64,000 nt of DNA, from contig NZ_QJJK01000002.1 of assembly GCF_003201475.1 (NCBI RefSeq), positions 558,001 through 622,000 of the forward strand, read 5' to 3'. The notes under the pieces were generated by a model. It made no database searches. It was not told the DNA's origin and was given only the letters and a program-made list of their open reading frames with translations. Position numbers and translations under genes: made by a program. Within the stretch, counting starts at the first letter, position 1. Every line of letters begins with the position of its first letter. This document shows, piece by piece, positions 23,502-34,490 of this stretch. The DNA comes from Chelatococcus asaccharovorans (GTDB lineage Bacteria > Pseudomonadota > Alphaproteobacteria > Rhizobiales > Beijerinckiaceae).

Positions 23502-24605
23502 TTACATGTTCGCCTTCACGCGCTTGTTCCACATATCCGCCCATTTCGGGCCGTTCGCGGCGATCTTGGCGTAGTCGAGCTGAATGGCGGATGCGATCGC
23601 CTTCGGCTGGATGGTGGGATCCGCAGCGACGCTGTCGGGCAGCTTGACGTTATCCATGAGGGGGATGACGTCCGCCGTCAGGCAGTAGTCGAGCACGTTC
23701 TCGGGCGACAGCGAGATATTGATGAGGTCGCGGCAGACGGGGAGCTGCGTCTCGCTTGTGCCGTTCACGAGCTGGAAGCCTTCCGGGAACGCCACTTGTC
23801 CCTCGCGCGGCATCGCATATCCGATGGGCGCGCCCGCCTTGGCCCAGGGCAAGGCGACGCCCCGGAAATGCGGTGCCAGGACCACCTCTCCCGACACCAG
23901 CAGCTGCTGCATTTGGGCGTTCGATGTCACCATGGAATGGAACTGGCCCGCGCGCGCGGCCTTCTCGTACAGGGCGATGGCGGGCTCGATGTTATCCTCG
24001 CTGCCGCCATGGAGTTTCGCGATGACGACAAGCCCGTTGCCCGGCCAGAAGCCGTCAAACAGCGCAATCTTGCCCTTGAGCGCCGGATCGAACAGGGCGT
24101 CCCAGCTATCCGGGACCGACTGGCCGAAGTATTTCGTGTTGTAGACGAGCCCGCCGGCATCCATGCAGAAGAACGCGCCGAGATCCCCCTTCTGCCGGAA
24201 TTGCGGCAGAATGTGAGCCACGTTCGGCACGGTTGCCGGGTCGATCGGCAGCCACATGTCGACAAGCCGGCCGCGCTCGGAGGCATCGAGATTGAAGAAG
24301 CCCAGGTTGAGGAGCGGCGCCTTGGGGTCGATGTCGCGCGAAGCGGCGAGCTTGGGATAGGTCGCCCCGTTCGTTCCGGCAATGATGTCGATGGTGACGC
24401 CCGGATGCGCCTTCACATACTCGGCCGCGATACGACGGGGAACCGGCTCCTGCGCGCCTGTCCAGATGAACTGGGTGACCTTCGTCGCCGCCTGGGCCGA
24501 ACTCCTGCCCGGCAGGAGGCTCGATAAGCCGGCACCGGCGGCGCCTGCCAGCATCGCGCGGCGGCTGATTGCTGAACGGGCGCCGGATTTGTCTATGGCT
24601 GTCAT
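23502..24605 (-). CDS. Spermidine/putrescine-type substrate-binding protein
   Basis: This 367-residue periplasmic protein has a twin-arginine-like signal (SRRAMLAGAAGAGLSSLLPG, then AQA). It carries the family phrases DPALKGKIALFDG and VYNTKYFGQSVPDSWDALF. It supplies the PotABC-type importer at 20631-23426 and is the first gene of the hydantoinase/peptidase operon. The family often carries compounds other than polyamines when linked to catabolic enzymes, so a hydantoin-like or oxoproline-like substrate is inferred. Confidence 0.9.
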   Translation of the reverse strand: MTAIDKSGARSAISRRAMLAGAAGAGLSSLLPGRSSAQAATKVTQFIWTGAQEPVPRRIAAEYVKAHPGVTIDIIAGTNGATYPKLAASRDIDPKAPLLNLGFFNLDASERGRLVDMWLPIDPATVPNVAHILPQFRQKGDLGAFFCMDAGGLVYNTKYFGQSVPDSWDALFDPALKGKIALFDGFWPGNGLVVIAKLHGGSEDNIEPAIALYEKAARAGQFHSMVTSNAQMQQLLVSGEVVLAPHFRGVALPWAKAGAPIGYAMPREGQVAFPEGFQLVNGTSETQLPVCRDLINISLSPENVLDYCLTADVIPLMDNVKLPDSVAADPTIQPKAIASAIQLDYAKIAANGPKWADMWNKRVKANM

Positions 24606-24699
24606 TATTATGTCCTTTCACGGGTTGCCGGCGTTGCCGCCGGTCTTGTCAAAGGCGGCTGTTCCCTGCGCGCCCCTCTGGAACGTCTTGACGGCGTGT

Positions 24700-24846
24700 A
24701 GAGCCCGGCGGCGTGTCGGGACATGGGAGATGTCGTGATCGAGCCCGCAAAGCGCGTCTGGGGAGGACGCGTGTCTCCGCTCGGCCTGAAATGAGGGTGA
24801 CCTTACAAGCCTTCAGCATCTCCACGACGGTGTCCGCGCCGTTCAT
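24700..24846 (-). pseudogene. N-terminal remnant of a thiamine-diphosphate enzyme (IlvB-like)
   Basis: Reading from ATG 24846 gives MNGADTVVEMLKACKVT, a typical N-terminus of acetolactate-synthase-like ThDP enzymes. After that the family pattern is broken: SGDT and DALCGLDHDISHV appear in other frames. The remaining 500 or so residues are absent. This is a dead 5' fragment with more than one frameshift. Confidence 0.55.
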
Positions 24847-24903
24847 GCGCTTATCACCTGACAGACCGCTACTCCTCACCCGCGTTCAACTCTGTATGCG
24901 CAT

Positions 24904-24925
24904 CATTATACAGCTCGGAATAATG
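24904..24925. promoter_or_regulatory. Inverted repeat upstream of the ThDP-enzyme remnant
   Basis: CATTAT (24904-24909) and ATAATG (24920-24925) flank a short core in an AT-rich patch about 60 bases upstream of the remnant's start. It could be a leftover operator of the decayed gene. Confidence 0.3.
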
Positions 24926-25245
24926 GTCAATATCGCACCGTGTCGAATTTGCGCGCGGCCCAACGACGGGGCTTGCGCGCCGGTCAACTGATGGTGCGCA
25001 GGTCGCGTCACGGTGATCAGGAAGATGTCGCTCCAGCGCCATGACCCGCGGCACGGGTTGGGCATGACGGCACCTACCGGCAAGGCGAGGTTGGCTGGCT
25101 GGTGTATGCCTCAGGCGGCACTGCGCAATACGCCTGGATCACGACAGATCAGCTGGGGCGGAGAATCGGAATGAGCGTAAGGGGGCCAGGGCACGGCCGC
25201 GTGGTCTGGTGTCCGCGGCCCCGTGCCCCGCCTCTTTAGCCGGCT
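24926..25245. other. Intergenic region with a GC-rich hairpin at the end of the ubiX operon
   Basis: These 320 bases hold no gene I recognise. Near the ubiX stop, GGGCACGGCCGCG (25189-25201) pairs with CGCGGCCCCGTGCCC (25214-25228), leaving a 2-base bulge. The hairpin is strong but no T-run follows on the minus strand, so it is a weak terminator candidate or an mRNA 3' end stabiliser. Confidence 0.45.
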
Positions 25246-25869
25246 CTAGATGTGGTCAGCATCAGGGCCTCGTGGATCGCGCGGCTCGCCCCAGCGGCGA
25301 ACGGTGCCGGTGTCGATGTCGAAGAGATCGAGCGCCCGGCCGACGCTATGGGCGACCATCTCGTCGAGATCCCGGGGCTTCGCGTAGAAGGCGGGTACAG
25401 GCGGCATGACGATGGCGCCCATCTCAGTCACCTGGGTCATGCTGCGCAGATGCCCGAGATGCAGCGGCGTCTCGCGAACCATGAGGACGAGGCGCCGTCG
25501 TTCCTTGAGGACGACGTCGGCGGCACGGCTCAACAGCCCCGCGGTCACGCCGCTGGCGATTTCCGACAGGCTGCGGATCGAGCACGGCGCGACCAGCATA
25601 CCCATCGTCCGGAACGACCCGGAGGATATCGGCGCGCCGATATCTTCCGCCTTGTAGACGACACCCGCCAGGGCATGAACCTCAGCCACTTTCAGCGACA
25701 TTTCATGGGCGAGCGTGATCTGCGCCGAGCGGGTCATCACGAGATGCGTCTCGATGCCAAGCCGGCGCAGGATTTCGAGCGCCCGCACGCCGTAGACGAT
25801 GCCGGAGGCGCCGCTGATGCCGACGATCAGCCGGCGCGGACCCTCACCGTCGTGCGTTGCGCGTGTCAT
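25246..25869 (-). CDS. ubiX: UbiX/Pad1-type flavin prenyltransferase
   Basis: UbiX prenylates FMN to make prFMN, the cofactor of UbiD decarboxylases. The 207-residue protein shows the FMN loop VGISGASGIVYGVRALEIL, the segment VAPCSIRSLSEIASGVT, LKERRRLVLMVRETPLHLGH and the terminal PPVPAFYAKP, all diagnostic. I placed the start at ATG 25869, seven bases after the binding-protein stop. It closes the operon headed by a UbiD gene (31304-32647), so it likely makes cofactor for that enzyme. A housekeeping ubiquinone role is less likely. Confidence 0.93.
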   Translation of the reverse strand: MTRATHDGEGPRRLIVGISGASGIVYGVRALEILRRLGIETHLVMTRSAQITLAHEMSLKVAEVHALAGVVYKAEDIGAPISSGSFRTMGMLVAPCSIRSLSEIASGVTAGLLSRAADVVLKERRRLVLMVRETPLHLGHLRSMTQVTEMGAIVMPPVPAFYAKPRDLDEMVAHSVGRALDLFDIDTGTVRRWGEPRDPRGPDADHI

Positions 25870-25876
25870 TGTCGTC

Positions 25877-26875
25877 TCACATCTTCGGCAGGAAGTCGTT
25901 GGTGTAGAAGACCGAGACGTCGTCAACGGTCTTCGTCAGACCGCCGTAGTCCTTCATCAGGGTCTGCGCCTCTTCCCAACGCTGCTTGCTGGAATAGCCG
26001 ATCCCGTGCGTCTTGGTGTCCGGGGTCTCCAGCAGGGGCGCGGTCGCCTTGAGCTTGGCGACCTCGACTTCGGCCTTCAGCGAAGGCGCGCGCTTGATGA
26101 GCGCGGCGACGGCTTCCTCGGGATGCTCGATGGCGTAGCGATAGGCGCGGATGCTGGCCTTGACGAAGCCGGCGACCACCTTCGGCGAGGAGGCGATCGT
26201 GTCCTTATGCGCGGCGATGCCGTCGCCCATCGTGTCGATGCCGAATTCCGAATAGGCGAAGCACTGGACCTCGTTATTCGTCGTCGCCGCCAGCCCGATA
26301 TAGGAATCGTTCGTGAAGCCGGTGATGGCCTGCGCGCGTTTTGCCAGGAAGGTCTGGGTGCGGGTGCCGCCATCGGACGCGACGATCTGCACGGCATTGC
26401 GCTGCACGTTGTTCTTGGCGAGGAGCGCATAGAGCATCGTGGTGGTCGTGTCGCCCTGCAGCGTCGCCACCACCTTGCCGACGAGATCGGACGGCTTGGT
26501 GATGTTCTGGTCCTTCCAGCTGATCAGCGCGTTGGGGCTCACCTGGTAGATCTGGGCGACCGTGCGCACCGGCATGCCCTGGGCCGCGCCCAGCATGAGG
26601 GACGGCGGATCGACGATGGTGAAGGTGTCCTGCCCGCTTGCCACGAGCTGCATGGAGGAGGTGACGCCCTTGCCTTCCAGGACCTCCACATCGAGCCCTT
26701 CCTCGCGGTAGAAGCCCTTGTCCACGCCGAGGAGATAAGGGGAGCGATGGCCGTTGTAGTTGAAGGCCAGCCGGACGGTCGCCTTGGTGAGGCCTTGAGC
26801 GCGGGCGAAGCCGCCTGTCAACCCGAAGGTGCCGGCAGCAACGGTGCCGGCCATGAATGAACGCCTGGAAAACAT
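25877..26875 (-). CDS. NMT1/TauA-type substrate-binding protein
   Basis: This 332-residue binding protein is of the nitrate/sulfonate/thiamine-precursor type. It has a twin-arginine-like N-terminus MFSRRSFMAGTVAAGTFGL, then VRLAFNYNGHRSPYLLGVDKG and the family segment VLEGKGVTSSMQLVASGQDTF broken over two motifs. It delivers substrate to the permease at 27669 and ATPase at 26893. Members bind sulfonates, aromatic acids, pyrimidines and similar compounds. Here the ligand is presumably the acid acted on by the UbiD enzyme. Confidence 0.9.
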   Translation of the reverse strand: MFSRRSFMAGTVAAGTFGLTGGFARAQGLTKATVRLAFNYNGHRSPYLLGVDKGFYREEGLDVEVLEGKGVTSSMQLVASGQDTFTIVDPPSLMLGAAQGMPVRTVAQIYQVSPNALISWKDQNITKPSDLVGKVVATLQGDTTTTMLYALLAKNNVQRNAVQIVASDGGTRTQTFLAKRAQAITGFTNDSYIGLAATTNNEVQCFAYSEFGIDTMGDGIAAHKDTIASSPKVVAGFVKASIRAYRYAIEHPEEAVAALIKRAPSLKAEVEVAKLKATAPLLETPDTKTHGIGYSSKQRWEEAQTLMKDYGGLTKTVDDVSVFYTNDFLPKM

Positions 26876-26892
26876 GTGGTCTTACCCCTCTG

Positions 26893-27672
26893 TCAGTATT
26901 TCTTGAGAACGCCGTGACGCTCGAAGAGATGGCGCACATGCGCCACGATCTCGACGAAACGTCGCGATTCCATGGTCTCGGGCCTGCGTGGAAAGGGCAG
27001 GTCGACCTCGACAATCTCCGCGATCCGTCCGGGACGCGGGGTCATCACCAGAACGCGCTGCGCGAGCAGGATCGCCTCCTGGATATCGTGCGTGACGAAC
27101 ATCACGCTCTTGCGCTCCCTCAGCCAGAGCTGGTGGAGCTCCATCACCATCTGCTCGCGCGTCAGGGCATCGAGCGCGCCGAAGGGCTCGTCCATGAGAA
27201 GGAGCGGCGGGTTGTGGATGAGCGCCCGGCAGATGGACACGCGCTGGCGCATGCCGCCCGATAGCTCATACGGGTATTTGTCCTCGAAGCCGGCGAGGCC
27301 GACGAGTGCCAGCAGATCGCGCGCCTTCTGCTCGTAAGCTTTCAGATCAAGCCCGCGGATCTGCGGCTGGATCATGACGTTGTCGAGAACCCGCCGCCAG
27401 TCGAGCAGCACGTCTGTCTGGAAGACGATGCCGATATCGGTCACGGGGCGATCGATGCGCCGTCCCGCTTGCTCGACCGTTCCGGAGGTCGGGAACTCGA
27501 GGCCCGAGGCAAGCGACAGCAGCGTGCTCTTGCCGCAGCCACTCGGCCCGAGAATGGAGAGGAACTCACCCTCGGCGATGCGAAAATCGATGCCGTCCAG
27601 CGCCTGCACCGGCCCGCTTGCCGTGCGGTAGATCTTGCCGACCTCGGTCAGCGCGAGTGCCGCCGCGGTCAT
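26893..27672 (-). CDS. ABC ATPase, TauB/SsuB type
   Basis: This 259-residue ATPase has Walker A GPSGCGKST, signature LSGGMRQR and Walker B LLMDEPFGALDALT, followed by FVTHDIQEAILLAQRV, which is characteristic of the TauB/SsuB/NrtD group. The start overlaps the permease stop by four bases. It energises uptake through the neighbouring permease. Confidence 0.93.
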   Translation of the reverse strand: MTAAALALTEVGKIYRTASGPVQALDGIDFRIAEGEFLSILGPSGCGKSTLLSLASGLEFPTSGTVEQAGRRIDRPVTDIGIVFQTDVLLDWRRVLDNVMIQPQIRGLDLKAYEQKARDLLALVGLAGFEDKYPYELSGGMRQRVSICRALIHNPPLLLMDEPFGALDALTREQMVMELHQLWLRERKSVMFVTHDIQEAILLAQRVLVMTPRPGRIAEIVEVDLPFPRRPETMESRRFVEIVAHVRHLFERHGVLKKY

Positions 27673-28451
27673 GGGCTGCCTCCATGCTTCAGGCGCTGCG
27701 ACACATGCCAGGGCAGCGCCCAGCGCTCGACGCGATCGACCAGTGCGAACAGGGCGACGCCCATGAGGCTCAGCACCACGAGCACGGTGAAGGACAAGGT
27801 GACGTCAAGCGCCCCGTTGGCGACGATCAGCTGGTAGCCGAGGCCACGGTCGGCCGCGACGAACTCGCCGACGATGGCCCCGACGATGGCAAGCGTGCTC
27901 GCCACTTTGACGCCGGCGAAGATATGCGGCAACGCCGCCGGGACCTGGAAATTCACGAAGGTCTGCCAGCGCGAGGCGCCCATGGAACGGGCCAACCAGC
28001 TCACTTCCTTCGGGGCGGAGCGAAAGCCGACCAGGGAATCGACGACGATCGGGAAGAAGCAGATCAGGAAGGCGATGAGCACCTTCGGCATCAGGCCGAA
28101 GCCGAACCACACGACGAGCAGCGGCGCGATGGCGACCTTCGGGATGGTCTGCGAGGCGACCAGCACGGGATAGAGCATCCGCTCAAAAATCCGGATCTGC
28201 GCGAGGAGCGCTGCGAGCGGAATGCTCACGACGATCGCGAGGACGAAGCCGATGACGACCTCGAGTGTGGTGGCAGCGAAATGGTAGAGAAGCTGGTCCC
28301 AATCGGTGAAAAGACGCTGTGCGATTGCTGAGGGCGGGGGGAGGAGATAGGCCGGCACGCCCCCAATCCTGACGCCTGTTTCCCAGACGATGAGGATGAG
28401 AAGGCCAACGATCGGGCCATCAAGCGAGGTGGGAATACGGAATCGGTCCAT
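27669..28451 (-). CDS. ABC permease, TauC/SsuC type
   Basis: This 260-residue permease shows the family N-terminal segment with PAYLLPPPSAIAQRL and the coupling loop SWLARSMGASRWQTFVNFQV. About six hydrophobic spans are visible. It starts 12 bases after the aminotransferase stop in the ubiD operon. It belongs with the ATPase at 26893 and the binding protein at 25877. Confidence 0.92.
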   Translation of the reverse strand: MDRFRIPTSLDGPIVGLLILIVWETGVRIGGVPAYLLPPPSAIAQRLFTDWDQLLYHFAATTLEVVIGFVLAIVVSIPLAALLAQIRIFERMLYPVLVASQTIPKVAIAPLLVVWFGFGLMPKVLIAFLICFFPIVVDSLVGFRSAPKEVSWLARSMGASRWQTFVNFQVPAALPHIFAGVKVASTLAIVGAIVGEFVAADRGLGYQLIVANGALDVTLSFTVLVVLSLMGVALFALVDRVERWALPWHVSQRLKHGGSP

Positions 28452-28463
28452 GGTGACTCCCCC

Positions 28464-29564
28464 TTAAGCGATGGTCCGGATGGCGGCGACGAGCCGTTCG
28501 TTGTCCGCCCGCCCGCGCAACGACACCCTGAGGGCGCGATGATTTTCGAGGCCGCGGAATGAGGTCGCGTCCGCAACGACGAGGCCCTGGGACGCGAGGG
28601 CTTCCGCCGCCGCCGCGGGTGCGTGATGTGCGAGGTCCATCAGGATCATATTGGCGTTGCTGCCGCGGATGGAGATCCCCGGCGTCGCCTCCATGGCTGT
28701 GATGAAGAAATCCTTCTCGGCGGTGAAGGTTTGCTTGCAGCTTGCGAGAAATGCCTCGTCCGCCAGAGCCGCCACAGCGGCTTCGACGGAAGGCGCCGCG
28801 ATGTTGAAAGGCGGACGTCCCACCTCGGCCACGGCAACGAGATGAGGGTCGGCCACCGCATAGCCGATGCGCAGTCCCGCCAGGCCGAAATATTTGGAAA
28901 AGGTCCGGAGCACCACGACGTTGGAGAGCCGCTTGGGCAGGGCCATAGCGCCATCCTCGGCCGGATTGATCAAGGCCTCGTCGACCACGAAGATCGTATC
29001 CGCGTGGCGTGTCGCGAGATCGGCAGTCGCCTCGATCGCAAAGCGCTCGCCGGTCGGGTTGTTCGGCGAGCAGATGAAGGCGAGCGCGACGTTCTCGCGG
29101 GCGAGTGCGGCATCGAAGGCCGCGAGGTCCGTCTTTTCGGGCGACGGGCTTTCGACGGCGACGACGCGGCAGCCGCGCAGATTGGCCTCGAGCTCGTAGC
29201 GCGGGAAGGTCGGCACGTGGACAAGGACGGTACAGCCCTCGGTGGTCCAGGCATGGATGACGAGCTTGATGACGTCGTCAAGCCCGGCGCCGAAGAAGAG
29301 CCAATCTTCGGGAACATCATGGCGCAGCGCCACCGCCTGGCGGAGCCGGGCAAACCTAAGGTCCGGATAGAGATTACTGGTCGCAAGCGCGGCCTGTGCG
29401 GCCGCAATGGCGGCCGGCGGCGGCCCGAAGGGATTGACGTTCAGCGAGAAGTCCAGGATGGCGGCAGGGTCGAGACCATGCTTGGCGGCGATTGTCGCCA
29501 CCGATGTCTCGGCCTCGTAGAGCCTGACCGAGGCAAATTCGGCATTGCGCGGATTGAGTGTCAC
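28464..29564 (-). CDS. PLP-dependent aminotransferase, HisC/CobD-like
   Basis: This 366-residue class I/II aminotransferase-fold enzyme has ILDFSLNVNPFGPP near residue 36, typical of histidinol-phosphate aminotransferase and CobD-type decarboxylases. It also has ICSPNNPTG (164-172), the PLP-binding DEA (195-197) and the Schiff-base lysine K224 in TFSKYFGLAGLRIGY. The start is GTG 29564, forming a GTGA overlap with the preceding gene; open frame continues upstream but inside that gene. It could transaminate or decarboxylate an amino acid in this pathway; a cobalamin role is unlikely without other cob genes. Confidence 0.87.
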   Translation of the reverse strand: MTLNPRNAEFASVRLYEAETSVATIAAKHGLDPAAILDFSLNVNPFGPPPAAIAAAQAALATSNLYPDLRFARLRQAVALRHDVPEDWLFFGAGLDDVIKLVIHAWTTEGCTVLVHVPTFPRYELEANLRGCRVVAVESPSPEKTDLAAFDAALARENVALAFICSPNNPTGERFAIEATADLATRHADTIFVVDEALINPAEDGAMALPKRLSNVVVLRTFSKYFGLAGLRIGYAVADPHLVAVAEVGRPPFNIAAPSVEAAVAALADEAFLASCKQTFTAEKDFFITAMEATPGISIRGSNANMILMDLAHHAPAAAAEALASQGLVVADATSFRGLENHRALRVSLRGRADNERLVAAIRTIA

Positions 29565-30283
29565 GCCATGAGCCTCCCATAGCCCTGGAGCTTCGGCGTG
29601 ACGCCCAACGCGCGAAAGATCGCCCAGAGCGTGACCTGATTGCTGGTCAGCACGGGCTTGCCGAGCTCCGCCTCCAAGGCGCCGGCCACTTCGAGAGCCC
29701 GGAAATCCGTGCAGCTCACGAAGATCGCCTCGCTGTCCGGCGTATCCGTCGCGCGTACCAGTGCGGCCACCTCCGCGGGGGGCACCTCGCGGATCGCCTT
29801 GCCGGACAGGCCGAGCCCCCGCACTGCGGTGACGGTGAAGCCGCGGCCTGCGAGAAAGCGGCTTTCCGCTTCGTTGATCACGTCGAGATAGGGCGTGGCC
29901 AGCGCGAGGCGGCGCAAACCAAGGGCCGCACATGCCTCGACGATCGCCCGTGATGTCGCGACCACCGGGCAGCCGGTGATGGCGCCGATGGCCTCGATCT
30001 GCCGTGAAAGCCCCGCCTCACCGTCGATGAAGCTGCCGCTTGTGCAGGCGAAGGCGACGACCTCCGGAGAAACGGACGCGATCAGCGTGGCGGCTGCGGC
30101 GACGCCTTCATTCATCGCGCGCAAGCCCTCGGGGGTGGTCTCGCGCAGCATCACGCGGGTGGCGTGGAAGGTCAGGCCCGGCGGGGCGATCGCGGCACAG
30201 TCGGGCTCGATGACGGCGTTGACGGAGGGGATGATGAGCCCCACCCGGCGCGCGCTGTCAGGCCTCGGGAAGGCGGTGTTCAT
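29561..30283 (-). CDS. Asp/Glu-racemase superfamily protein, maleate-isomerase-like
   Basis: This 240-residue protein has two catalytic-type cysteines at the expected places: C80 in ACTSGS and C191 in SCTDFRA. The two-cysteine arrangement and the N-terminal VGLIIPSVNAVIEPD match the maleate cis-trans isomerase / arylmalonate decarboxylase branch of the superfamily. Such enzymes isomerise maleate to fumarate, racemise acidic amino acids or decarboxylate malonates. It overlaps both neighbours by four bases in the ubiD operon. Confidence 0.83.
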   Translation of the reverse strand: MNTAFPRPDSARRVGLIIPSVNAVIEPDCAAIAPPGLTFHATRVMLRETTPEGLRAMNEGVAAAATLIASVSPEVVAFACTSGSFIDGEAGLSRQIEAIGAITGCPVVATSRAIVEACAALGLRRLALATPYLDVINEAESRFLAGRGFTVTAVRGLGLSGKAIREVPPAEVAALVRATDTPDSEAIFVSCTDFRALEVAGALEAELGKPVLTSNQVTLWAIFRALGVTPKLQGYGRLMA

Positions 30284-31317
30284 TTCAGCTTCTGCCAGGA
30301 TGTCTGATAGCCCGCGATGTTGCCGCTCTCCCGCTGGCTGAGCACGACGAGGGAGCGCAGCAGGTCCACCATCGCGGCATTGGTGCGCGCGTCGGTGCCG
30401 TCCACATAAAGGCGCAACTGGCCGCCGACCGGATCGATCGCGCCGGCGCGCACGCAGGCTTCGATCAGCCGCACCTCCTCGGCGCCGTCATGGAAGGCGG
30501 CGTCGTTGCCCGTCAGTGCCGCGAGACAGGCGGCGATGCCGTAGGCGCCCCAGTTGGAAATATTGGCGATGACCGCGACATCCGCCGGCTGCACCGCCGC
30601 GATGGTCGCGCCGAGCGGCACCTCGCGGCGCACCTCCTCCGCGACGACGCCCATGCCGAGCTCGTTGCCGAGATCGCCCACGCCGATCGTTGGGATGCCG
30701 CGCTTGCGCGCCTCGGCGAAAAGGATGTCGGTCTTGGCCGTGAAGGACGAAATCTCGAAGCCGCCGCCGCCGTGATACGCGCCGTCGCTGCCGGCGCCCG
30801 GCCGCTCCACGGCGACCAGAGCTTTCGGCTGCAGGCGGTCGAGAAGGGCGATCGCGGCAACCTCGGCGTCTGCCGGGTCGACTGGAAAGCCCACCAGCGC
30901 GCAGCGATTGCGCGCGGAATGGATCTCGTCGAGCGAGGCCGGAATGAGCCCTGTCGTGGAGAAGCAGGCCTCCATGCAGGGCACGACGGAGTCTTCCGAC
31001 ACGCCGACCGGGATCGCGCCGAGGCCGACGGCAAGCGCCTTGGCGATGACGGCGGCGCCGATCGGCCCGTCGGTCTCCGGCCGGCCATAGCCGCGCATGA
31101 TGAAGCCCGAGAGAATGAGCACCGTGTCGCCTTCACCGACATTGTCGGCGAGCAGCCGGCTCGCGGCGAGCGTCAATGGCTGGCCGCCTGCCTTCTCGCG
31201 CGCCGCAGCGTAGAGCTTGAGCAGCGGGATGTCCTTGAGGATCGTCCAGTTCGACATCGGTGCCGTGACGAGGTGGTCGAGCGCCTCGCCGATCCGTTCG
31301 ATACTAATGCCCGACAT
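30280..31317 (-). CDS. DUF4392 (D-glutamate cyclase C-terminal-type) protein
   Basis: This 345-residue protein consists of the DUF4392 domain, known from mammalian D-glutamate cyclase, which converts D-glutamate to 5-oxo-D-proline. It shows ILSGFIMRGYGRPETDGPIG (about residues 66-85), VAVERPGAGSDGAYHG and GVGDLGNELGMG. Its bacterial roles are mostly unassigned. I chose ATG 31317 (MSGISIERIG), overlapping the UbiD stop by 14 bases; the frame continues upstream only as antisense-like noise within ubiD. Its place between UbiD and an isomerase suggests action on an acidic amino acid or lactam. Confidence 0.85.
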   Translation of the reverse strand: MSGISIERIGEALDHLVTAPMSNWTILKDIPLLKLYAAAREKAGGQPLTLAASRLLADNVGEGDTVLILSGFIMRGYGRPETDGPIGAAVIAKALAVGLGAIPVGVSEDSVVPCMEACFSTTGLIPASLDEIHSARNRCALVGFPVDPADAEVAAIALLDRLQPKALVAVERPGAGSDGAYHGGGGFEISSFTAKTDILFAEARKRGIPTIGVGDLGNELGMGVVAEEVRREVPLGATIAAVQPADVAVIANISNWGAYGIAACLAALTGNDAAFHDGAEEVRLIEACVRAGAIDPVGGQLRLYVDGTDARTNAAMVDLLRSLVVLSQRESGNIAGYQTSWQKLK

Positions 31318-32647
31318 CGATGTAATCCTCCAGGCGGACGCTTTCCTCACCGGGGAAACGCCTGCGTTCGAACAATCCCTTGAGATGGACCGGCACGGTC
31401 GCGTCGATGCCGACCTTGCCGCGGTGGACGTCACGCACATCCTCGCGCGTGTAGCTCGGAATGCGTGGCACCGTATAGATCCCGGTCTCCGGCGTGCAGC
31501 GGGTCTGGATGGCCCAAAGCACGTCGGCGGCATTGAAGGGATCGACGTCCTCGTCGACGACAACGACCACCTTCGTCCAGGAATAGCCGCCGATGGCCGC
31601 CAGCAACGCGTTCTTTGGCTGGTCCTCGTTCTGCTTCTCGATGGCGATGACGCAGCCGAAGACATAGCCCGGTGTCGCGATATCCTTGATCTTCGGCACG
31701 AAGGCCGAGACCTTCTTGTAAATCTCGGTCTGGATCGGCACGCCGACCAGGTTGAGATCCTCGGTGCCGCCGGCGAGGATGGCGTGATAGACCGCGTCGC
31801 GCCGGCGGGTGATGGCCTTCACCTTGAAAACGTGGTTCTTCATCACCGGCACATAGCCGTCGGTGAATTCGCCGAACGGTCCTTCATCTTCGCGCGTGCC
31901 GCAGATGACCTCGCCCTCGATGACGATTTCCGCATCGGCCGGCACATCGACGGGGATGGTCTTGCAGCGCGTGACACGCAGCGGCTTGCCCTGCCAGGCG
32001 CCGGCGACCTCGAGCTCGTCCACCTCGTAGGGCACCTTGGATGCCGCCGAGAACATGAGGCCGGGAGGGGCGCCGATGACGATGGCGCAGGGAAGGTTCT
32101 GGCCCTTGGCTTCCGCCTCGGCGTGATAGCGGCCGAGATGTTGCGGCGGCATCATGCGCACGCGCAGCTTGTCGTCGCCGACAAGCTGGCAGCGGTTCCA
32201 CGACGCGTTGTACACGCCGGTCTCGGGATGGGGGGCGATGAGCACGCCGGCCGTGATATAGGCGCCGGCGTCATGTTCGGCATAGACGATCTGCGGCAGG
32301 TCGCGCGCGACGTCGATCTCCGCGCCGATCTTGACGATCTCCTGCACAGGAGCATCCGTGACCCGATCGACCGGCAAACGGCGGTTTTCCTGCGCGACAA
32401 GAGTGCGCAGCAGGTTGCCTTCCTCGAGGCCCAGCGCGGCGGCCACGGCGCTGCGGAAGCCGAAGACATTGGTGGCGACGGGGATTTCGCTGCCTTTAAC
32501 ATTCTTGAACAGAAGCGCCTTGTTGTCGCCCTTCTGCATGTGCCGCATCACCGCCGTCAGTTCGTGCCGGGGATCGACGATGCGTGACACCGTGGCGACA
32601 TCGCCCTTCTGATCCATCCAGTCGAGCAACTGGCGAAACGTTTCCAT
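31304..32647 (-). CDS. ubiD: UbiD-family prFMN-dependent decarboxylase
   Basis: This 447-residue UbiD-family enzyme reversibly (de)carboxylates unsaturated or aromatic acids using prFMN. The active-site set is complete: NASWNR (147-152) gives the catalytic Arg R152, and EGPFGE (255-260) gives the two glutamates, matching the E-R-E triad of Fdc1. I used ATG 32647 (METFRQLL); ATG 32656 would add three residues. It is the first gene of an operon ending with ubiX and is read divergently from an IclR regulator. Co-location with an importer and an aminotransferase argues for catabolism of an external acid. Confidence 0.92.
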   Translation of the reverse strand: METFRQLLDWMDQKGDVATVSRIVDPRHELTAVMRHMQKGDNKALLFKNVKGSEIPVATNVFGFRSAVAAALGLEEGNLLRTLVAQENRRLPVDRVTDAPVQEIVKIGAEIDVARDLPQIVYAEHDAGAYITAGVLIAPHPETGVYNASWNRCQLVGDDKLRVRMMPPQHLGRYHAEAEAKGQNLPCAIVIGAPPGLMFSAASKVPYEVDELEVAGAWQGKPLRVTRCKTIPVDVPADAEIVIEGEVICGTREDEGPFGEFTDGYVPVMKNHVFKVKAITRRRDAVYHAILAGGTEDLNLVGVPIQTEIYKKVSAFVPKIKDIATPGYVFGCVIAIEKQNEDQPKNALLAAIGGYSWTKVVVVVDEDVDPFNAADVLWAIQTRCTPETGIYTVPRIPSYTREDVRDVHRGKVGIDATVPVHLKGLFERRRFPGEESVRLEDYIDVGH

Positions 32648-32708
32648 CGCTTGCATGCCACCGTACCGATTGATTGACCGCGCTTCGCGGATTATTATGT
32701 GTTGGCTA

Positions 32709-32740
32709 TTGCGCAACGTCGTTGCGCAGAACTATAGTTC
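32709..32740. promoter_or_regulatory. Operators and promoter in the ubiD-iclR divergent region
   Basis: TGCGCAAC (32710-32717) and GTTGCGCA (32721-32728) form a perfect 8-base inverted repeat with a 3-base spacer. A perfect 12-base palindrome GAACTATAGTTC (32729-32740) follows immediately. On the plus strand TTGCGC (32709-32714) and TATAGT (32733-32738), 18 bases apart, could be the iclR promoter, so the operator would cover it. An AT-rich ATAATAAT about 20 bases away on the minus side could be the -10 of ubiD. Confidence 0.6.
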
Positions 32741-32779
32741 CACGCCGCGTCCGATTCAGTCAAGGTTTGGCAAGCGACC

Positions 32780-33631
32780 ATGAGCGTAAAAAATAAGCAG
32801 CCTTCCGCTCAAAGAACGGCCAAGCGTGAGCCGACCGTCCACGCCGTGCGCCATGCCGTGGAATTGCTGCGTTGCATCGCGCAGGCACAGCCGGAAATCA
32901 GCATTTCAGAGGCGGCGCGGCGTGTGGGTCTCCACAAGAGCTCCGTCTCGCGGCTGATCGCCACGCTCGTGGCCGAGCATCTCGTGGAGCGCAATCCGCA
33001 AACCGATGGCGTGCGGCTGAGCTTCGGGCTCGTGGCCCTGGCCGCGCCCCTTCTGTCCGGCACGGGCCTCCCGCAAGTCGCGCGTAGCCGGATCACCGCG
33101 CTCGCCGAGCGTTCCGGTGAGACGGTGAATCTCAGTGTCTGGGATGGCGCGCAGGCGATCAGCGTTTTCCAGGCCCTCGGCACCAACGCGATCACCCACT
33201 ATGCAGCGCCTGGGCAAAGTAACCCGGCCCATTGCACGGCTTCCGGCAAGTTGCTGCTGGCCTTTGCCTCACCGGGGGAGATCGAGCACATTCTGGCGGA
33301 GCCGCTCACACGTTATACGGAGAACACCTGTACCGATCCGGCTGTCCTGGCGCGCGAGCTGCCGCAGATACGCAGCGTGGGGAGAGCCGTGAACCGGGGG
33401 GAATTCGCGATCGACGTGGGCGCCGTCGCTGCAATCGTGCGGGACATGGATGGCCGGGCCAGGGCTGCGGTGACCGTGACCTTGCCAATGTATCGCTTTT
33501 CGCCCGAGCGGGAGGCGGATCTGCTCGCCATGGTCGAGGCGACGGCATCCGAGATTTCCGCGCAGCTGGGCTATCAGCGCGGATCCCCTGTCGACGCTTT
33601 TGCAGCTGGATTTCTTCCGGCCGGGCTCTGA
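32780..33631 (+). CDS. IclR-family transcriptional regulator
   Basis: This 283-residue regulator has an N-terminal winged helix (ISISEAARRVGLHKSSVSRL, about residues 40-60) and a C-terminal IclR effector domain including HYAAPGQSNPAHCTASGKLL. IclR proteins commonly control divergent catabolic operons for aromatic or short acids. It is transcribed away from ubiD with the operator at 32709-32740 between them, so it most probably controls the ubiD-ubiX operon and itself. Confidence 0.92.
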   Translation: MSVKNKQPSAQRTAKREPTVHAVRHAVELLRCIAQAQPEISISEAARRVGLHKSSVSRLIATLVAEHLVERNPQTDGVRLSFGLVALAAPLLSGTGLPQVARSRITALAERSGETVNLSVWDGAQAISVFQALGTNAITHYAAPGQSNPAHCTASGKLLLAFASPGEIEHILAEPLTRYTENTCTDPAVLARELPQIRSVGRAVNRGEFAIDVGAVAAIVRDMDGRARAAVTVTLPMYRFSPEREADLLAMVEATASEISAQLGYQRGSPVDAFAAGFLPAGL

Positions 33632-33944
33632 TCCGTGCCGAGATGCCCGGCTCTCGGGAAGCGAATGCGACAGCTAGATCCAGCCTCACATCGCAGGCGG
33701 CGCGCTGCAATTCGGCGGTTTATTGTACACGGCGTGATCCAGATCCGAGATCTGTGCGCCTGTGAACGCAGCGTCACTGGATAGGTTGCAGGTTTCGCCC
33801 GCGATGTTCGAGCGTCGCCGTCTGCCGCTTTCCGTGGATCGTCGGTCCGCGCGGCACGATCCAATCCGGGCAAACTTATAGCTATTGTGATGGTGTTCGA
33901 TATTTTTTATTGTCATTCAAATTTCCAATGCACGGAGTGCAGGT
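33632..33944. other. Intergenic region without recognised features
   Basis: These 313 bases contain short open frames on both strands but no family resemblance or good ribosome binding site. The last 60 bases are AT-rich and probably hold the promoter of the hydrolase gene that follows. Confidence 0.45.
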
Positions 33945-34490
33945 ATGCCGCTGCTCGATCGCGATCGATGCCGACTTTTGGTGGTCGACATCCAGGAGAA
34001 GCTTCTTCCCGCCATGGACGCGCAGGAGAGTTTCGTCCGGAATGCCGCGATCGTCCTGCAAGCGGCACGCACGCTTGGTGTTCCGAGCCTCATCAGCGAG
34101 CAGTATCCGCAAGGGCTGGGATCGACGATCGCGCCGATCACGAGCCTCGCACCGGATGTCCCGAGGTTGTCGAAAACGACGTTCTCCTGCGCTCTCGAGC
34201 CCCGAATGCGGGAATGGTTCGATCTGAACGCGAGCGGACAGATCGTCCTCATCGGCCTCGAGGCGCATGTCTGCGTTCTGCAGACCGCGATGGACCTTCA
34301 GCGGGATGGTTTCGAGGTTTTCGTCGTTGCCGATGCCGTTTCGTCACGCAGGGCGACCAGCGTACAGACGGCCCTCTCGCGCCTCGCGGCCGCATCCGTT
34401 TCAATCGTCACGACGGAGATGGTTGTCTTTGAATGGATGCGCACGGCGGCTTCTCCTCATTTCAAGGCACTCAGCAAGCTCATCCGCTGA
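33945..34490 (+). CDS. Isochorismatase-family cysteine hydrolase
   Basis: This 181-residue hydrolase has the complete catalytic triad of the family: D15 (VVDIQEKLLP), K77 (RLSKTTFS) and C110 (EAHVCVLQTA). The region SEQYPQGLGSTI is characteristic of the YcaC-like subgroup. These enzymes hydrolyse amides such as ureidoacrylates, nicotinamide or N-carbamoyl compounds. It precedes an XRE-cupin regulator in the same direction and faces a PotABCD-type operon with a second isochorismatase-family gene. Confidence 0.9.
   Translation: MPLLDRDRCRLLVVDIQEKLLPAMDAQESFVRNAAIVLQAARTLGVPSLISEQYPQGLGSTIAPITSLAPDVPRLSKTTFSCALEPRMREWFDLNASGQIVLIGLEAHVCVLQTAMDLQRDGFEVFVVADAVSSRRATSVQTALSRLAAASVSIVTTEMVVFEWMRTAASPHFKALSKLIR

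What the first reader, a model, noticed from the sequence alone, without database searches (positions are those of the whole stretch)
25246..33631. Undescribed operon: UbiD/UbiX with DUF4392, maleate-isomerase-like, aminotransferase and TauABC-type importer
Seen: eight co-directional genes with overlaps of 4-14 bases or gaps of at most 17 bases, plus a divergent IclR gene. UbiD has the complete R152/E255/E260 triad, and a dedicated ubiX is present. Known: UbiD enzymes decarboxylate unsaturated or aromatic acids; DUF4392 is the D-glutamate cyclase domain; the two-cysteine protein fits maleate isomerase or racemase. Inference: an imported unsaturated or N-containing acid is decarboxylated, then converted through an amino acid or lactam intermediate. 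I cannot name a published pathway with this gene set.
Basis: partly seen in the sequence, partly recalled or inferred. Interest (0 to 1): 0.82.

Follow-up and report, generated by a model that had tools for sequence, protein, structure and literature searches.

The report
Undescribed mobile UbiD/UbiX nutrient-breakdown operon
A set of nine bacterial genes that travel together appears to import and break down a still unknown acid, probably a nitrogen-ring compound and perhaps one related to histidine, using a rare flavin cofactor made on the spot; no description of this gene set was found.

Summary
Eight co-directional genes (ubiD, DUF4392, two-cysteine racemase/isomerase, HisC-like PLP enzyme, permease, ATPase, binding protein, ubiX) and a divergent iclR lie at 25246-33631. 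The nine genes keep this order at 13 of 14 places examined, the 14th being cut by its contig end: several alphaproteobacterial lineages, one betaproteobacterial MAG and a conjugative plasmid. A three-half-site operator lies between iclR and ubiD; 12 of 13 genomes or records hold exactly one copy, the 13th none.

The UbiD keeps its catalytic triad. It lacks the carboxylate-binding pair recalled for its nearest solved relative (HmfF) and has an asparagine where, by eye, pyrrole- and indole-carboxylate decarboxylases have one. In two lineages histidine-degradation genes directly follow ubiX, one an extra histidine ammonia-lyase. A sister UbiD cluster with a HutC-type regulator lies beside it in one congener.

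Best reading: a self-contained, mobile catabolic operon for an imported carboxylated azole-type compound, decarboxylated by a prFMN enzyme, racemised and transaminated, possibly feeding histidine breakdown. The substrate is not shown, and at most loci hut genes are not adjacent.

The parts
31304..32656 (-). ubiD: prFMN-dependent decarboxylase, TIGR00148 subfamily; start ATG 32656 or, more likely, 32647
   Evidence: Pfam UbiD 204 bits; TIGR00148 338 bits over cut-off 245; triad invariant in 13 aligned sequences; nearest solved chain 6h6v
30280..31317 (-). DUF4392 (GLUCM-like_C) protein with six conserved acidic metal ligands (E81, D83, E171, D215, E219, D306)
   Evidence: Pfam PF14336 248 bits; aligned to TON_0340-type chains, ligands named in PMC5132392; all six invariant in 14 of 14
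29561..30283 (-). Asp/Glu racemase superfamily protein (AMDase/EutA/maleate isomerase side) with two catalytic-type cysteines C80 and C191
   Evidence: Pfam Amdase 139 bits; EutA and AMDase models below their equivalog cut-offs; both cysteines invariant in 14 of 14; two Cys mark racemases rather than AMDases (PMC4996985, passages)
28464..29564 (-). fold-type I PLP enzyme, between HisC and CobD, GTG start
   Evidence: Aminotran_1_2 156 bits; HisC 241.6 (cut-off 276.55) and CobD 226 (cut-off 290.55), both below cut-off; lysine K224 of the RTFSK motif invariant in 14 of 14
27669..28451 (-). ABC permease, TauC/SsuC type
   Evidence: BPD_transp_1 96.6 bits; NCBIfam importer models all below cut-off
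26893..27672 (-). ABC ATPase, TauB/SsuB type
   Evidence: ABC_tran 110 bits; PRK11248 230.6 bits, below its equivalog cut-off of 357
25877..26875 (-). periplasmic binding protein, NMT1/THI5 family
   Evidence: NMT1 170 bits; nearest solved chains 4nmy and 3ix1
25246..25869 (-). ubiX: flavin prenyltransferase
   Evidence: PRK06029 260 bits over cut-off 188; TIGR00421 231 over 109
32780..33631 (+). divergent IclR-family regulator
   Evidence: IclR_C 134 bits and HTH_IclR 52 bits; conserved divergent next to ubiD
32701..32724 (-). operator: inverted repeat CAAC-N3-GTTG plus a third CAAC half-site; likely IclR site (inference)
   Evidence: aligned intergenic regions of 13 loci; one exact copy in the window; one copy in each of 12 of 13 genomes or records at up to 1 mismatch

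Best explanation
A self-contained, horizontally moving catabolic operon under its own IclR-type repressor. SHOWN by sequence: gene set, order, conservation, intact catalytic residues, a single conserved operator. INFERRED: the ABC importer takes up a small N-heteroaromatic (azole-type) compound that carries a ring or conjugated carboxylate and an amino-acid or 2-oxo-acid side chain; UbiX makes prFMN; UbiD removes the carboxylate, with N302 holding the ring nitrogen; the two-cysteine enzyme racemises or isomerises an intermediate; the HisC/CobD-like PLP enzyme transaminates (or decarboxylates) it; the metal-dependent DUF4392 protein does a hydrolytic or cyclising step. Where hut genes follow, the product would enter histidine breakdown as histidine or urocanate. 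My guess at the exact substrate, a ring-carboxylated histidine-like acid, is much weaker (about 0.15).
For: Nine-gene synteny at 13 of 14 places, the 14th cut. Operator once per genome in 12 of 13. Own UbiX and intact triad. N302 of UbiD is invariant and lines up, by eye, with N318 of HudA, which holds the azole nitrogen (PMC7976604, passages; HudA sequence), and with an Asn of the indole-3-carboxylate decarboxylase AnInD; HmfF has Leu there and its H296/R304 are D300/I308 here (the role of H296/R304 in HmfF is recalled, and the passages I looked up do not name them). In L028 hutU starts 64 bases after ubiX and hutH follows, with hutI and hutF beyond iclR; HutF, HutI and HutU are at or over equivalog cut-offs, HutH was judged by Pfam. 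In L026 a second hutH (724 bits, cut-off 539) starts 182 bases after ubiX although that genome's main hut cluster has its own. The plasmid with the operon carries a hut cluster about 21 kb away round the circle. Sister UbiD cluster B has HutC over cut-off in 3 of 3 tested and lies beside the operon in G015.
Against: No substrate is shown. No hut gene was found by the operon in the window, its three congeners, three Afifella-type genomes, L022, L024 or L025; hutU is on another contig in the window genome and 145 to 177 kb away in G432 and G325. The operator does not recur upstream of hut genes, so co-regulation would need read-through. Urocanase is common anyway: 76 of 149 genomes of the order. 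HutC naming rests on a profile, not on a ligand. The PLP enzyme is below the HisC cut-off. The N302/N318 match is by eye, with no structures compared, and the nearest solved relative by sequence acts on a furan acid.
Confidence: 0.4

Rival explanations
1. One reading: an unsaturated aliphatic or lactam-type amino acid (5-oxoproline or hydantoin like) is imported; UbiD decarboxylates it and DUF4392 plus the racemase work on a glutamate-like lactam.
For: DUF4392 is a domain of the mammalian D-glutamate cyclase (PMC5339696); the two nearest non-operon racemase relatives in the plasmid collection both sit by hydantoinase/oxoprolinase genes; in the window a hydantoinase A/B pair lies downstream.
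Against: By sequence the UbiD is nearest to the (hetero)aromatic HmfF and AnInD enzymes; no hydantoinase pair was seen (by eye) in the ORF lists around the operon in the six other loci and three congeners listed; for DUF4392 alone I saw only a weak phosphatase activity.
Confidence: 0.25
2. The UbiD is a furan, pyrone or benzenoid (di)carboxylate decarboxylase, and the hut links are accidents of catabolic islands.
For: Nearest solved chain is 6h6v (280 bits), which PMC8988006 names as HmfF; in L022 a UbiD that keeps the HmfF His and Arg lies next door (by eye).
Against: H296/R304 of HmfF are D300/I308 here and D300 is not conserved; N302 is invariant; racemase and PLP enzymes make little sense for a furan acid (inference).
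Confidence: 0.15
3. Not catabolic: the operon makes or detoxifies a small molecule.
For: UbiD/UbiX pairs also occur in biosynthetic clusters (NCBIfam has BagN/FevL models); low frequency and plasmid carriage.
Against: An ABC importer with binding protein and an IclR regulator belong to the same unit; no exporter, ligase or carrier protein is among the nine genes; hut genes are neighbours at two loci.
Confidence: 0.1

Closest known systems
HmfF and AnInD, UbiD decarboxylases of furandicarboxylate and indole-3-carboxylate (PMC8988006 groups the two)
   Same: Length, triad; nearest solved chains 6h6v and 7p9q
   Different: HmfF H296/R304 replaced; shares the Asn with AnInD; I know of no described member that sits with DUF4392, racemase and HisC-like genes
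HudA/PA0254 pyrrole-2-carboxylate decarboxylase (PMC7976604)
   Same: Asn at the azole-nitrogen position (by eye)
   Different: Distant (106 bits) and longer; setting of its gene not examined
Cluster B: HutC-UbiD-UbiX-racemase-FAD/2Fe2S dehydrogenase with ALDH and Pot-type ABC (P. denitrificans, S. meliloti, the window's genus)
   Same: UbiD, UbiX, a racemase-family protein and an amino-acid-oxidising type of enzyme; adjacent to the operon in G015
   Different: UbiD 36-39% identical in the global alignment; dehydrogenase in place of the PLP enzyme; no DUF4392; I did not find it described either, but made no search aimed at it except
Histidine utilisation (hut) pathway
   Same: HutF, HutI, HutU, HutH flank the operon in L028; extra HutH in L026
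   Different: No hut enzyme belongs to the operon itself; not adjacent in most hosts
EutA / AMDase / maleate isomerase family
   Same: Sequence family; C191 equivalent to Cys188 of AMDase
   Different: Has the second Cys that AMDases lack; below EutA and AMDase cut-offs

Membership tests
UbiD family decarboxylase | UbiD N, core and C domains over Pfam cut-offs | tested here: met
   PF20695, PF01977, PF20696 all over cut-off
UbiD family decarboxylase | R-E-E catalytic network | tested here: met
   R155/E258/E263 invariant in 13 aligned sequences
UbiD family decarboxylase | prFMN binding and decarboxylation | not testable with these tools
   needs enzyme assay; a ubiX is in the operon
HmfF (FDCA decarboxylase) | His296/Arg304 pair for the second carboxylate (role recalled) | tested here: not met
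   D300/I308 at those places
Azole-carboxylate UbiD (HudA, AnInD) | Asn facing the ring nitrogen (shown for HudA in PMC7976604) | tested here: inconclusive
   N302 invariant and aligned by eye; no structure compared
DUF4392 / GLUCM-like_C | six acidic metal ligands of TON_0340 | tested here: met
   E81, D83, E171, D215, E219, D306
D-glutamate cyclase (mouse type) | DUF1445 domain together with DUF4392 | tested here: not met
   only the DUF4392 domain is found
D-glutamate cyclase (mouse type) | D-Glu to 5-oxo-D-Pro activity | not testable with these tools
   needs enzyme assay
Arylmalonate decarboxylase | single Cys188 with Gly74 | tested here: not met
   C80 and C191; score below cut-off
Two-Cys racemase/isomerase of the Asp/Glu superfamily | two catalytic Cys | tested here: met
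   C80 and C191 invariant, 14 of 14; activity not testable
Histidinol-phosphate aminotransferase (HisC) | equivalog score | tested here: not met
   241.6 bits against 276.55
Taurine/sulfonate importer TauABC | equivalog scores of SBP, ATPase, permease | tested here: not met
   all below cut-off; it is of that ABC type, ligand unknown
hut pathway accessory operon | conserved linkage to hut genes | tested here: inconclusive
   adjacent at L028 and L026, same plasmid in L018, not adjacent at the other loci read

The most novel reading that the evidence does not exclude
The operon is a new catabolic pathway in which a prFMN-dependent UbiD strips a carboxylate from an imidazole-type amino acid (or its 2-oxo acid), and two-cysteine racemase, PLP and DUF4392 enzymes turn the product into histidine or urocanate for the hut pathway. 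It would be, as far as I know, the first UbiD route into histidine catabolism and would give DUF4392 a physiological job in bacteria.
Probability: 0.22. Interest if true: 0.8.

Novelty: new variant of a known kind. Interest (0 to 1): 0.58.

Why it matters
Only a handful of UbiD enzymes are characterised in detail (abstract of PMC8988006), and the bacterial role of DUF4392 is open. A rare, mobile, nine-gene unit with its own importer, cofactor synthase, regulator and one operator per genome is an easy system in which to find both. It may also link prFMN chemistry to amino-acid (possibly histidine) breakdown; the two searches that paired UbiD with urocanate or with histidine degradation listed no such report.

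Tried and rejected
FDCA/furan decarboxylase: rejected as first choice because the recalled HmfF carboxylate pair is absent. Mouse-type D-glutamate cyclase: the DUF1445 partner domain is absent. AMDase: two cysteines. Riboswitch or other RNA: none at gathering cut-offs in 24500-34000. Downstream hydantoinase/Pot-ABC cluster as part of the system: not seen, by eye, near the operon in the ORF lists of relatives. Obligatory partnership with cluster B: B-type UbiD (90% identity or more to the G015 copy) in 6 of 12 genomes only. Operator shared with hut genes: not found. Published pathway: paper searches showed none in their listings; two searches returned no paper; one search listed 20 of 93 papers and one search listed 10 of 17, so these lists were not seen whole. 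I saw passages only of PMC5132392, PMC5339696, PMC8988006, PMC7976604, PMC8379154 and PMC4996985; no paper was read whole. More betaproteobacterial copies: 1 of 300 genomes, the known one. The promoter/terminator scan gave counts not far above its shuffles (3 against a mean of 1.3; 8 against 4.8) and is not used. Structure prediction and fold search were not run: they would not fix the substrate.
Full report
OBSERVATION. The window carries, on the minus strand from 32656 down to 25246, ubiD, a DUF4392 gene, an Asp/Glu-racemase-superfamily gene, a PLP enzyme gene, an ABC permease, ATPase and binding protein, and ubiX; a divergent iclR lies at 32780-33631. The triad R152/E255/E260 is right if translation starts at ATG 32647. 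Five UbiD genes exist in this genome; of these only this one lies by a DUF4392 gene (the other DUF4392 match, C10:55724, is about 170 kb from the nearest UbiD).

CONSERVATION. The 14th, L027, is cut by its contig end after the PLP gene. Outside the genus, identities to the window are 79-89% for UbiD, 72-86% for DUF4392, 56-74% for the racemase and 58-78% for the PLP enzyme. The operon is rare. With the DUF4392 protein as query, copies of the operon type (72% identity or more) were seen in 4 of 298 genomes of the family, 4 of 397 of the order, 1 of 385 of the class and 1 of 300 of the order of L028 (E limit 1e-60); the window genome or the L028 genome itself is counted in each. The other matches listed were at most 40% identical. 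The UbiD tree puts the betaproteobacterial copy with the window's genus and L022 (support 83/95, under the tool's threshold), and the Bosea and Rhizobium MAG copies are nearly the same. The plasmid copy lies between transposase genes on a plasmid typed as conjugative and is 3.7 and 4.8 points lower in G+C than its two flanks; the L028 copy, at 72.0%, matches its flanks (73.8 and 72.2%), which speaks against contamination. Horizontal movement is likely (inference).

CONTROL. Aligned iclR-ubiD intergenic regions of 13 loci show one conserved block: CAAC-N3-GTTG followed nine bases later by a third CAAC; in L028 the first half-site is degenerate. In the window it lies at 32701-32724. Searched over 13 genomes or records at up to one mismatch, 12 hold exactly one copy, all without mismatch, and G1060 (L028) none; the reversed control pattern gave 2 hits in all. 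At three mismatches the window alone would be expected to hold 0.86 by chance, so the strength lies in position and conservation, not in one sequence. This is probably the IclR site (inference), and at this stringency the regulon is one operon. No Rfam family matched 24500-34000.

ENZYMES. UbiD: nearest solved chain 6h6v (280 bits), then 7p9q AnInD (200 bits). PMC8988006 names 6h6v as HmfF and groups AnInD with HmfF (passages). HmfF's H296/R304, which I recall as the second-carboxylate pair (no call shows that role), are D300/I308 here, and D300 is not conserved. N302 is invariant and, by eye, lines up with an Asn of AnInD and with N318 of HudA, which is within hydrogen-bonding distance of the imidazole nitrogen in the HudA complex (PMC7976604, passages). 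HudA converts a little imidazole-4-carboxylate (1.3%, same paper). DUF4392: all six metal ligands of TON_0340 are kept; activities I saw for the family are a weak Mn phosphatase (PMC5132392) and, in the mouse DUF1445-DUF4392 protein, D-glutamate cyclase (PMC5339696). The racemase-family protein has both cysteines, so it is of racemase/isomerase rather than AMDase type. The PLP enzyme scores highest with HisC and next with CobD, under both cut-offs. The binding protein is NMT1/THI5-like, nearest to 4nmy and to a pyrimidine-binding protein 3ix1; the ligand cannot be read from this.

HUT LINK. In L028, hutI and hutF lie beyond iclR, and hutU starts 64 bases after the ubiX stop, followed by hutH; HutF (525 bits, cut-off 525; second model 488.5 over 413), HutI (462 over 298) and HutU (944 over 375) reach equivalog cut-offs, HutH was judged by Pfam, 616 bits. 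In L026 a histidine ammonia-lyase (724 bits over 539) starts 182 bases after the ubiX stop, while that genome's main hut cluster on another contig has its own hutH, 56-57% identical. The plasmid with the operon carries hutU, G, H, I, F and D about 21 kb away round the circle, among many other catabolic genes. Against this: in the window genome hutU is on another contig, in G432 and G325 it is 145 to 177 kb away, and no HutF, I, U or H match was found in the fetched stretches around the operon of the window, its congeners, the Afifella-type genomes, L022, L024 or L025. Of 14 operon-bearing genomes or records searched, 13 have a urocanase; G402 and G1056 look like one genome, so that is 11 of 12 distinct genomes plus the plasmid; the MAG of L027 has none, and L024 could not be searched. 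But 76 of 149 genomes of the order have one too, so presence alone is weak. Adjacency in two separate lineages is the real evidence.

SISTER CLUSTER. Another UbiD group (36-39% identical to this one in the global alignment; 77-95% among its close members) sits in Paracoccus, Sinorhizobium and the window's genus with UbiX, a racemase-family protein of another kind, a three-part FAD/2Fe2S dehydrogenase, an aldehyde dehydrogenase and, in Paracoccus and (by eye) G015, a TPP enzyme; a short form with importer, UbiD and UbiX is on another plasmid of P. aestuariivivens. Its regulator passes the HutC equivalog cut-off in 3 of 3 tested (268, 262 and 258 bits against 220). In G015 it lies directly beside the operon; in L026 and L027 a short form does. 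At 90% identity it is absent from 6 of 12 operon-bearing genomes, so it is a companion, not a part. No hut enzyme genes are listed within 9 kb of it in the two plasmids read.

MECHANISM AND VERDICT. Import, prFMN decarboxylation of an azole-type acid, racemisation or isomerisation, PLP step, DUF4392 step; the order after UbiD is a guess. I put 0.4 on this general reading and about 0.15 on a ring-carboxylated histidine-like substrate. The rivals are a lactam/5-oxoproline route, a furan or benzenoid acid, and a non-catabolic role. As a system it is a new variant of the known UbiD/UbiX catabolic operon. Nothing was found in print for it in the searches named, which cover open-licence PMC papers only and of which I saw listings.

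Noticed in passing
L018:9090-9608; L026:1495-1872; L064:1971-2339 (G015); L061:3599-3955; L066:11199-11555; L091:4839-5375; L092:14420-14986; L093:15468-15953: A small protein of unknown function, TIGR02444, recurs near UbiD/UbiX clusters (B type, and the plasmid copy of the operon). It could be a UbiD/prFMN helper, as LpdD or PhdC are in other systems (known to me here from titles and abstract starts only). The one search for its names listed two papers, neither with UbiD in its title or abstract start.
   Followed up: partly
window:33-4161: RepC, RepB and a ParA-type (repA) gene in a row: the window starts at a repABC replication region, so the operon is on a secondary replicon, about 21 kb from repA.
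   Followed up: partly
window:12701-24605: Gamma-glutamyltransferase, M24 peptidase, hydantoinase/oxoprolinase B and A and a binding protein with Pot-type ABC genes lie beyond ubiX (ATPase and permeases by eye). The hydantoinase pair was not seen near the operon in the congeners, but a like gamma-glutamyltransferase gene lies about 1.4 kb beyond ubiX in G015 (by eye).
   Followed up: partly
L019, L020, L067: Other DUF4392 genes: in L020 and L067 two lie near each other with an oxidoreductase, an aldehyde dehydrogenase and amino-acid ABC genes (in L020 with a gene annotated selenocysteine synthase between them); in L019 one lies by a threonine/serine dehydratase. This suggests amino-acid substrates for the family.
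   Followed up: no
L022:6232-7701: A second UbiD that keeps the HmfF His and Arg (by eye) lies beyond iclR, with a molybdenum hydroxylase gene further on: perhaps a furan-acid cluster.
   Followed up: no
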